A program made the position numbers and the translations under genes. The notes beneath the pieces are model-generated. The model ran no database searches. It saw nothing but the letters and a program-made list of their open reading frames with translations, and was not told where the DNA came from. DNA of 64,000 nt, from assembly GCA_003024175.1 (NCBI GenBank), contig MDYQ01000021.1, positions 62,001 through 126,000 on the forward strand, read 5' to 3'. Positions within the stretch are counted from its first letter, which is position 1; each line of letters starts with the position of its first letter. This document shows positions 62,087 to 64,000 of the stretch, in pieces. This stretch comes from Planoprotostelium fungivorum (Eukaryota > Evosea > Variosea > Cavosteliida > Cavosteliaceae).

Positions 62087-63091
62087 TCACCTCTTAAATT
62101 CGTTCCACACGTGCTCCAACTCGGGTGGTGCTATCTCTCTCGTCGTGCAGTGTTCATCCACGTAGTAATGTGAATAGACAATAGATGCAGCTCCGCAGAC
62201 AAAGAGAGCGCATGAGAAGAAGAGAAGCCAAGACAGTGGTGATGTTCTGGGTGGTTTCGTTTGGATAGAGGATGTGGCGTCCTCGATATCTTTCTTCTGT
62301 GTCTTGATAGGGGATTTAGATGATTCTTGTTCCTGTGGACTCGTGGGTGCCTGAAGATCATGTCAATGTGTGCAGATGTTAGGATGCATCATTACCTTCT
62401 TAACGGATGGAGGTCTGGGCATGTTTCTATCGGCAAAAGCTGATCCGGATGAGCTCTTAACGGCCATGGTCTGTAGTCGTCAATGACAATGCGGAATGTG
62501 TTGTTCATGCATACCTTCTTCTTCAAGACGTAACCGACACTGTCTGTAGGTGTGGATGTGCTTTCATCTTTCGAAGCGGGTTGAGGTGTGTGAGGAATGG
62601 TGGTCTCTCGATCGATTGAGATCTCATCGTGTTCATCGATCTCCTCCATCACTGTCTTATCCATGAAGTCCTTCTCCACTTCACCTTCGAAGAGGCAACG
62701 TCTGATGTCAGGTGCTACGAGGGGTAAATTTGTATGATGACGATGGAATCGCTCACGAGGTGATCTGCGTGCCTTTTCGTCCTTTACATCCGAAGAGCAG
62801 CCTCCTTCTTCGAGTTTTAGAATCTCGGCGATCTCTTCTAACATCATCCTCTTTGTTCTACGGCTCTTTCCACCCGAATGAGTCTAAATGGTCAATCAAC
62901 AATCTCCTTCGTAAAATAATAAGACTCACGTTCACGACGCCCTTCAGCTTTGGATGGCATTTTACAAACTCTGTGATCTGACTCAATGTGGGGTCCAAAC
63001 CAAGAGCGGGAGAGGATGGTGGCGAATAGATGAGCTCTCCTGACTCCGCCTTCAATTTCTCAAGTTTAGGAGTGACTTTACAGTCTGTCAT
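62087..63091 (-). CDS. Unknown tail-anchored protein, Pro/Ser-rich
   Basis: Not recognised. Starts MTDCKVTPKLEKLKAESGEL and PPSSPALGLDPTLSQITEFV, then SGGKSRRTKRMMLEEIAEIL, an acidic disordered part (IDEHDEISIDRETTIPHTPQ), TSTPTDSVGYVLKKK and PIKTQKKDIEDATSSIQTKP. One membrane helix near the end (LLFFSCALFVCGAASIVYSH) is followed by a short tail ending LEHVWNEFKR. A single helix so close to the C-terminus fits a tail-anchored protein of the ER or nuclear envelope, with the disordered head in the cytosol or nucleus. Four or five exons. Divergent from the H2A-like gene, 167 bp between starts. Confidence 0.6.
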
Positions 63092-63258
63092 GTTGCTCTT
63101 GTGGTGATTCCAAAAAATGAGATCATCTTTCAGTTGGCGCCTTTTCGCAAAGTGCGAGAAAATTCAAACGGCCAACTTTGGCGCCTGCATCTGATCAGAA
63201 GACAAATTCTCAATTTGCAAACGAACGTGAGGGTGGAGAGATATCTGGAACACATAAA

Positions 63259-64000
63259 ATGCCAATCATTCCCGTCGTCGATGTCAAATCACTGGATCGA
63301 ACACGACCGCAATATGGACCTCTTGATCCGGGCCCTCCTCCGTCTTCAGCAGCAGGATTACTGGTTCCAGTGTCCTGTGTTTACGAAGATCTCCAACAGC
63401 ACCCTGTCTTTGGCATGGATGGCAGACCGAGAAGACACCAACGCAGCACAAGCAGCCACGTCTATATAGCTAGTGTATTACAGTGTCTGATGGCAGAAGT
63501 GCTAAAATCAGCCGGTAATGCTGCGAAAGAGGAGGGTGTATGCACCATCGAGCCGGATCACATTGGGACAGCATTGAAGAAAGATGAGAAACTGCTCAAG
63601 TTGGTCGTGGCACTGAAGGGAGACGCCGACGTCACCGGAGGAGAGACTCCAGCTGTGGTTGAAACTGACCAAGTTCAAGTGAGTGTCTTCACAAGACGAT
63701 GAGACGCCCTGACTGAGGACATCGATAGTTGTTTGATTTGAACGCGGACTGGCTGCAGATTGTGTTCTACCACGTCGAAACTGTCCATCTCATCCAGTCC
63801 TGCTCGTTCGTGTGCAAGAGTTGGAGGGAGATGTTGCACCCTGACAGCAACTTTTGGAAGCGCCGGTTTCTCAGTCTGTATCACTTGAAGCCGAGGGGCA
63901 ATATACCTGACGAGGCTTATCTTCAGGTATGCGCAACGGTGTATGTAGACTGAGATGGATACGAGGCGTTCCAAGATGGTGCTTACAGCTGGAGAGAAGT
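63259..64000 (+). CDS. Histone H2A-like domain spliced to an F-box (partial, runs off the window)
   Basis: Residues 1-30 form a Pro-rich tail (MPIIPVVDVKSLDRTRPQYG). Residues 31-118 follow the H2A fold: SAAGLLVPVSCVYEDLQQ matches H2A 'SRAGLQFPVGRVHRLLRK'; VYIASVLQCLMAEVLKSAGN matches helix alpha-2; AAKEEGVCTIEPDHIGTALK and KDEKLLKLV match alpha-3. The L1 loop is about six residues longer. At codon 140 a GTGAGT donor (63679) opens a 50-base intron ending TAG at 63728. In the same phase the next exon gives an F-box: NADWLQIVFYHVETVHLIQS, CSFVCKSWREMLHPDSNFWK. That exon has an in-frame stop just before it and no ATG of its own, so it needs the upstream exon. A second intron (63927-63988) precedes the window edge. 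F-boxes link proteins to SCF ubiquitin ligases. Without splicing the first exon would end at 63702, giving 147 residues. Confidence 0.72.
63679..63728 (+). other. Phase-0 intron joining the H2A-like and F-box exons
   Basis: Starts GTGAGTGTC and ends GATAG, 50 bases, within the size range of other introns here. Phase is 0 on both sides. It contains the in-frame TGA at 63700-63702 that would otherwise end the H2A-like frame. Confidence 0.65.

What the first reader, a model, noticed from the sequence alone, without database searches (positions are those of the whole stretch)
63259..64000. A histone H2A-like domain fused by splicing to an F-box
Seen: an H2A-like frame reaches a consensus donor at 63679 in phase 0. 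The next exon, 50 bases on, is a clear F-box (WLQIVFYHV..., VCKSWREM...FWKRR), has a stop codon directly before it and no ATG of its own. Known: F-boxes bind SKP1 to bring targets to SCF ubiquitin ligases, and core histones are chromatin parts. Inferred: a protein that reads or sits in nucleosomes, or mimics H2A/H2B dimers, while recruiting ubiquitination. I know of no described H2A-F-box protein.
Basis: partly seen in the sequence, partly recalled or inferred. Interest (0 to 1): 0.88.

Follow-up and report, generated by a model that had tools for sequence, protein, structure and literature searches.

The report
Amoeba H2A–F-box–H3 fusion protein family
In one fungus-eating amoeba, a small gene family joins a histone H2A-like part, an F-box (the usual handle of a protein-tagging enzyme) and a histone H3-like part into one protein, a combination our searches met in no other organism, which suggests a ubiquitin ligase that uses pieces of histones to find its target.

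Summary
The organism is Planoprotostelium fungivorum. The window holds exons 1, 2 and part of 3 of a six-exon gene; continued past 64000 it encodes 686 residues: H2A-like fold, F-box, H3-like segment, an unassigned region, weak ankyrin matches. The H2A-to-F-box junction (63678|63729, phase 0, 50-base intron) recurs at the same codon in the three paralogs, with a stop codon in the F-box frame at most 15 bases before the F-box exon in 4 of 4 copies. NCBI's models contain the same junction in 4 of 4 copies. H2A, F-box and H3-like parts of the window copy are under purifying selection. Three protein searches and three (weak) viral scans met no relative outside this species. Most likely mechanism, inferred: an SCF substrate receptor whose tail-less, acidic histone folds capture free histones, a histone chaperone or chromatin. 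Closest analogue: animal ABTB2 (double histone fold + ankyrin + BTB). Expression and binding were not testable; the H3 assignment rests mainly on the first half of the fold.

The parts
63259..63678 (+). Exon 1: start codon and H2A-like histone fold (fold about residues 30-118)
   Evidence: Pfam Histone E 2.7e-4 alone; PDB H2A E 8.6e-16 with the 4-copy profile; 56-60% identical to three paralogs
63679..63728 (+). Intron 1, 50 bases, GTGAGT...TAG, phase 0; TAG is also an in-frame stop before the F-box
   Evidence: homologous introns of 54, 53 and 54 bases in the three paralogs (for c55 and c462, for c381)
63729..63926 (+). Exon 2: F-box (66 codons)
   Evidence: Pfam F-box-like E 2.7e-5; PDB FBXO44/FBXO6 E 0.013
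63927..63965 (+). Intron 2, 39 bases, GT-AG; homologous to a 42-base GC-AG stretch in the paralogs that NCBI models leave in
63966..64000 (+). Exon 3, first 35 of 78 bases (continues to 64043 in window-extended coordinates); exons 4-6 lie at 64114-64442, 64482-64819, 64858-65555 beyond the window and carry the H3-like segment and ankyrin matches
   Evidence: exon 3 omega 0.05-0.09 against three paralogs; skipped in the NCBI model P0004
63177..63184 (+). E2F-type motif TTTGGCGC, 74 bases before the start codon; may instead serve the divergent neighbour
   Evidence: that TTTSSCGC is an E2F-type site is recalled

Best explanation
Shown: one gene, spliced as its four copies agree, encodes an H2A-like fold, an F-box, an H3-like segment, an unassigned region and weak ankyrin matches, in three copies with intact reading frames in Planoprotostelium fungivorum. 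Inferred: the F-box binds SKP1 and makes the protein a substrate receptor of an SCF (CUL1) ubiquitin ligase. The two histone folds, without basic tails and acidic, no longer package DNA but act as binding arms: the H2A-like fold for an H2B-type partner, the H3-like fold for an H4-type partner or a histone chaperone. The ligase would thereby be brought to non-nucleosomal histones, their chaperones or chromatin. Ankyrin repeats may add a further binding site. The single-gene fusion itself I hold at about 0.95, the H3 identity of the second fold at about 0.85, and the histone-directed SCF mechanism at about 0.4.
For: Junction conserved in 4 of 4 copies, same codon and phase, with stops in between and intron lengths of 50/54/53/54. 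Omega between the window copy and c381: H2A exon 0.40 (0.25-0.64), F-box 0.23, H3-like 0.19, exon 3 0.09. NCBI models P0001-P0004 all contain the junction. H2A identity. H3 identity: hhalign probability 74, E 2.8e-5 against own H3, and at most 0.3 against own H2A, H2B, H4 and two genes I label NF-YC and TAF12; local score 81 for the window copy against a shuffle mean of 25.3, SD 4.4, 0 of 2000 shuffles reaching it; of the 60 PDB rows shown (165 matched) 59 are named H3 and one only 'Histone domain-containing protein'; the 60 rows shown of 137 with the 4-copy profile are H3 plus one viral doublet 'Gamma'. SKP1 in the genome. Loss of tails and charge.
Against: No transcript, protein or binding data. 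H3 evidence is strong only for about 47 residues (first helices); PDB E-values are 0.024 (window copy) and 0.11 (profile), and Pfam Histone on the isolated segment is 0.14 for the window copy and absent for c381, c55 and c462; in c462 a phage-tail chaperone model (0.059) scores as well as a histone fold (CENP-T 0.073). Pfam counts two Histone stretches in the window protein but one in each of P0001-P0003. The F-box is weak in whole proteins (E 0.00074-0.076), and CUL1 was not searched. The H2A fold has the highest omega (0.41-0.52). One copy has a premature stop and no N-terminus, and a fifth is a relic.
Confidence: 0.45

Rival explanations
1. The two histone folds pair with each other (or homodimerise) as a mere scaffold, like the double histone fold of SOS1 or ABTB2, and the ankyrin or unassigned region chooses an unrelated substrate. 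The protein is an SCF receptor that has nothing to do with chromatin.
For: The 2026 review says SOS double folds mediate intramolecular contacts and sees no evidence that these eukaryotic proteins replace nucleosomal histones (PMC13088155, section 12). Basic tails are lost. Ankyrin matches, all under cut-off, in the four NCBI proteins.
Against: H2A and H3 are not handshake partners in nucleosomes (recalled); the two folds are separated by an F-box; each part is specifically H2A-like or H3-like rather than generic. The same review reports DNA binding for ABTB2/Cca3 in certain cell-cycle states.
Confidence: 0.3
2. The protein is a chromatin-resident histone variant: it enters nucleosomes through its H2A-like part and brings SCF to chosen sites.
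For: H2A fold complete from helix 1 to helix 3; paralog c381 keeps five of six acidic-patch positions (E, E, E, D, K, E); the window copy has an E2F-type motif like the canonical histone genes examined.
Against: No basic tails, net negative charge, a 7-8 residue insertion in the first loop; three of six acidic-patch positions changed in the window copy (Q, E, K, D, E, K at H2A 56, 61, 64, 90, 91, 92; patch and numbering recalled, residues).
Confidence: 0.15
3. The family is decaying: a lineage-specific fusion amplified by duplication with little function.
For: Copy c462 lacks the N-terminus and has an in-frame stop, C127 is a relic; among the young copies omega is 0.59 and 0.84 for the H2A exon and 1.22 for exon 3 of c381 against c55 (26 codons); no homologue elsewhere.
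Against: The window copy is intact although dS from its paralogs is 0.58-1.6 in most parts, and omega is 0.05-0.52 in every part compared.
Confidence: 0.08
4. Two adjacent genes mis-joined by prediction: a small H2A-like protein ending at the stop 63700-63702 and a separate F-box gene.
For: Mis-joined histone models are known in animals (PMC9145170, passage). Retained intron 1 would give a 147-residue H2A-like protein. NCBI's models are predictions too and not proof.
Against: The gap is 50-54 bases, has stops in the F-box frame and no usable ATG in 4 of 4 copies; the phase and codon of the junction are conserved.
Confidence: 0.04

Closest known systems
ABTB2 (Cca3): double histone fold + ankyrin + BTB/POZ, animals (PMC13088155, section 12 read)
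   Same: Multidomain eukaryotic protein that combines histone folds, ankyrin repeats and a domain type used as a cullin-ligase adaptor (BTB-CUL3 role recalled)
   Different: Two contiguous folds, related to H2B and H2A (identities given there for its relatives Cca3S), and the adaptor is BTB; here H2A-like and H3-like parts flank an F-box
Histone doublets, triplets and quadruplets of giant viruses, including H2B-H2A-H3 triplets (PMC9145170, passages)
   Same: Several histone folds in one polypeptide, with H2A before H3; [quoted passage not shown]
   Different: The word F-box does not occur in that paper's text; three viral-contig scans confirmed no relative
Single-domain eukaryotic double histone folds with 60% or more identity to histones (Miyake et al. 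2026, as told in PMC13088155, section 12; original not seen)
   Same: Histone fusions in eukaryotes
   Different: Single-domain, reported from animals; no ligase domain mentioned
SOS1 histone domain (PMC13088155, section 12)
   Same: Histone folds reused for protein contacts in a non-packaging protein
   Different: A Ras exchange factor, no ligase domain
ASB9-CUL5 (PMC12914668, title and start of abstract seen in search listing)
   Same: Ankyrin-containing E3 substrate receptor reported to act on histones
   Different: Uses a SOCS box and has no histone fold (the latter recalled)
macroH2A and KDM2A/B (recalled, no call)
   Same: H2A fused to another domain; F-box protein working on chromatin
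   Different: Neither joins a histone fold to an F-box

Membership tests
F-box protein | F-box domain over the family cut-off | tested here: inconclusive
   24.3 bits against a 24.3 cut-off for the exon alone; under the cut-off in whole-protein scans, 13.2-19.7 bits; best PDB matches are F-box proteins
F-box protein | Binds SKP1 in an SCF complex | not testable with these tools
   SKP1 family matched over cut-off at 3 places in the genome; no binding data
Core histone H2A | Complete H2A-type histone fold | tested here: met
   PDB H2A alignment over profile 24-116, E 8.6e-16; hhalign 99 against own H2A
Core histone H2A | Basic N-terminal tail and net positive charge for DNA packaging | tested here: not met
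   N-terminal 30 residues -1 to +1, exon 1 -4 to -10, own H2A +11
Histone H3 | H3-type fold, three helices | tested here: inconclusive
   First about 47 residues H3-like; third-helix part aligns only with gaps
Histone H3 | H3 basic tail | tested here: not met
   Preceded by F-box exons; segment charge -10 to -15
ABTB2 / double histone fold proteins | Two contiguous histone folds that pair within the chain | tested here: not met
   The H2A- and H3-like parts are separated by an F-box; pairing itself not testable (structure tool off)
ABTB2 | Ankyrin repeats plus BTB | tested here: not met
   Ank matches under cut-off, no BTB row in Pfam scans at E 10 (HMMER filters drop most matches above 0.1)
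Giant-virus histone multiplets | Viral relative with the same order of folds | tested here: inconclusive
   No relative confirmed among 68, 118 and 50 pattern matches, but each scan used only two short peptide patterns

The most novel reading that the evidence does not exclude
A histone-decoy ubiquitin ligase: an SCF substrate receptor that evolved by capturing the host's own H2A and H3 folds, so that one arm binds H2B and the other H4, letting one protein seize both kinds of free histone partner, or their chaperones, for ubiquitination, possibly in S phase under E2F control.
Probability: 0.2. Interest if true: 0.92.

Novelty: new variant of a known kind. Interest (0 to 1): 0.74.

Why it matters
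A 2022 review states that no fused multi-histone proteins had been confirmed among eukaryotic histones and warns of mis-predicted splicing (PMC9145170, passage). A 2026 review does list eukaryotic double histone folds, among them ABTB2, SOS and a large single-domain family (PMC13088155, section 12), so histone fusion in eukaryotes is not new as such. New here is an H2A-like and an H3-like part around an F-box; four copies, shared intron phase and purifying selection make it credible without transcript data. If the histone folds do choose the substrate, it would be a ligase built from histones, a natural design for targeting free histones or their chaperones. Searches of the held open-access papers for H2A/F-box fusion terms returned 0 papers, and a looser one 13 papers, of which I saw titles and abstract starts only; subscription papers and preprints are not held.

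Tried and rejected
Structure prediction of P0004 with its three paralogs: tool switched off, so no fold search was possible. Giant-virus origin: three viral scans confirmed nothing, but each used only two short peptide patterns, so they are weak. H3 genes next to F-box genes elsewhere in the genome (C133, C64) were checked as possible further fusions: at C133 the F-box frame has its own ATG about 270 bases past the histone stop; at C64 the F-box lies 1.3 kb past the H3 stop; neither supports a fusion. A fifth locus, C127, proved a fragmentary relic. Searches for relatives of the H2A part inside long proteins (1 of 603 candidates passed, itself) and of residues 300-660 (1 of 2586 passed, itself) gave nothing outside the species; they did not list the paralogs P0001-P0003 either, which exceed the 1.75-fold length limit, so they would also miss any relative longer than about 1155 residues. 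The genome paper of the amoeba is not held. NCBIfam gave no usable match.

Full report
What was checked. The window frame 63259-63678 is open for 140 codons and ends at a GTGAGT donor in phase 0; a 50-base intron ending in TAG leads to an open frame 63729-63926 with an F-box. In the F-box frame the stop TAG lies at 63726-63728, with another stop 15 bases before the exon; the one in-frame ATG in the intron lies upstream of both, so the F-box cannot be started there.

The organism and the rest of the gene. The window is G000:C142:62001-126000 of a 36.9-Mb assembly. A protein search with a profile of three spliced copies returned four proteins, all from Planoprotostelium fungivorum (4 with E <= 0.01 of 8000 scored), an amoeba of the Variosea. 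Beyond the window the gene continues to 65555 in window-extended coordinates: six exons, introns of 50, 39, 70, 39 and 38 bases, 686 residues. NCBI's model of this copy (P0004, 660 residues, named 'histone H3-like') equals mine minus the 26 residues of exon 3, and the H2A-F-box junction of each of the four copies occurs letter for letter in its NCBI model. Whether RNA data stood behind those models is unknown to me; the genome paper is not held.

Paralogs. Searching the genome with exon 1 gave six places: the window copy, three relatives at 56-60% identity (C381, C55, C462), and two other H2A-type genes (C444, C36). The three relatives continue through a short intron into the same F-box exon, then the same downstream exons as far as their frames go. 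Intron 1 is 50, 54, 53 and 54 bases long and the codon phase is identical; because the lengths differ by numbers not divisible by three and stops lie in it, it cannot be coding in all copies. C462 is damaged (no N-terminus, in-frame stop) and C127 is a relic. C381 and C55 read on past the ankyrin region into a further stretch that looks F-box/leucine-rich by eye, which NCBI also joins (P0001, P0002); the window copy stops before it.

Selection. By Nei-Gojobori counts with codon bootstrap between the window copy and c381, omega is 0.40 (0.25-0.64) for the H2A exon, 0.44 (0.23-0.77) for the H2A fold, 0.23 for the F-box exon, 0.09 for exon 3, 0.19 for the H3-like part, 0.23 for the rest; against c55 0.42, 0.52, 0.16, 0.06, 0.24, 0.22; against c462 0.29, 0.41, 0.27, 0.05, 0.15, 0.30. 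Bootstraps reaching 1: 13 of 1000 for the H2A fold against c55, 3 of 1000 for the H2A fold and 3 of 1000 for the F-box against c462, 0 of 1000 in the other 15 rows. dS is 0.58-1.6, except 2.9 for exon 3 against c55 and three rows against c462 where it is undefined, so some ratios are near saturation. Among the younger copies constraint is less clear: H2A exon 0.59 (c381-c55) and 0.84 (c381-c462), F-box 0.13 and 0.68, exon 3 1.22 and 0.22, H3-like 0.31 and 0.19. The last c462 row rests on a poor alignment (28% identity over 87 codons).

What the parts are. H2A-like: PDB search with the four-copy profile lists H2A chains from E 8.6e-16, aligned from before the AGL of the first helix to the end of the third; against the genome's own histone-fold genes hhalign gives probability 99 for H2A, 10.8 for one I label NF-YC and at most 0.3 for H3, H2B, H4 and one I label TAF12. 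A 7-8 residue insertion lies in the first loop. Host origin is only hinted at: HI before helix 3 is found in 4 of 4 copies and in the C444 H2A, where the two PDB chains aligned have HL, but the C36 H2A also has HL; the S of VYLASVLEYL (C444) is shared by two copies (window, c381), the other two have G. No tree was built. F-box: weak but consistent; the genome has at least 129 F-box-like stretches (150 of 245 candidates scored), and SKP1. H3-like: Pfam counts two Histone stretches in the window protein (the place of the second is not printed) but one in each of P0001-P0003. Comparison with own H3 is specific: window copy 81 against 24-36 for the five other folds, shuffles mean 25.3, SD 4.4, maximum 53, 0 of 2000; 191 window ORFs used as decoys reached at most 46. 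The other three copies score 57-61, with 0 of 2000 shuffles each, shuffle maxima 52-56 and best decoys 44-52, so they are much closer to noise. The isolated segment is not significant in Pfam (Histone 0.14 and CENP-T fold 0.052 in the window copy; nothing in c381 and c55; CENP-T 0.073 and a phage-tail model 0.059 in c462). Ankyrin: Ank_4 E 0.0012 in the spliced window protein, under its cut-off.

Mechanism. An F-box most simply means SKP1-CUL1 recruitment (established for the family; not tested here). Histone folds need a partner; H2A's is H2B and H3's is H4 (established). The parts lack basic tails and are acidic: exon 1 -4 to -10, H3-like -10 to -15, whole protein -51 to -71 in the three copies computed, against +11 and +20 for own whole H2A and H3; fold alone, H2A differs little (0, -4, -3 against +1) and H3 more (against +4). 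That argues against DNA packaging and for protein capture. I therefore favour a substrate receptor with histone-fold arms, and keep as the main rival a scaffold use as in SOS1 and ABTB2.

Regulation hint. TTTSSCGC (an E2F-type consensus, recalled) occurs 7 times in the 64-kb window (3.66 expected; 8 of 100 shuffles reach 7), about 0.03 per 300 bases. It lies within 300 bases upstream of 6 of the 6 canonical histone genes examined (two H3, two H2B, one H2A, one H4; the H2A and H4 are divergent neighbours and may share one promoter; the other histone loci were not examined) and of the window copy, but not of c381 or c55; c462 has no N-terminus and was not examined. A divergent neighbour starts 167 bases away, so the site may not belong to the fusion gene.

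Novelty. Outside the species nothing was found: proteins; viral contigs. Relatives of this amoeba with sequenced genomes may simply be lacking. In the open-access library no paper combined the searched terms for an H2A/F-box fusion (0 papers; 13 papers, titles and abstract starts seen only).

Noticed in passing
63177-63184 and G000 histone genes: E2F-type TTTSSCGC motifs lie upstream of 6 of 6 canonical histone genes examined in this genome and of the window fusion copy, not of two paralogs.
   Followed up: partly
L008 (C381), L009 (C55), P0001, P0002: Two paralogs read on past the ankyrin region into a second F-box/leucine-rich-like stretch (by eye), giving NCBI proteins of 1225 and 1291 residues.
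   Followed up: partly
L035 (C133), L023/L029 (C155), L025/L028/L030 (C9): Several divergent H3 variants besides canonical H3, possibly a centromeric type among them.
   Followed up: no
L008-L010, intron 2: The paralogs carry a GCAAGT...CAG stretch of 42 bases (GC-AG intron or coding insert) where the window copy has a 39-base GT-AG intron containing a stop.
   Followed up: partly
62087-63091, - strand: The divergent neighbour looks like a gene with short introns, several SP/TP sites and one C-terminal membrane stretch (by eye).
   Followed up: no
P0003 / L010 (C462): NCBI's model of the damaged copy is spliced so as to pass over the in-frame stop.
   Followed up: no
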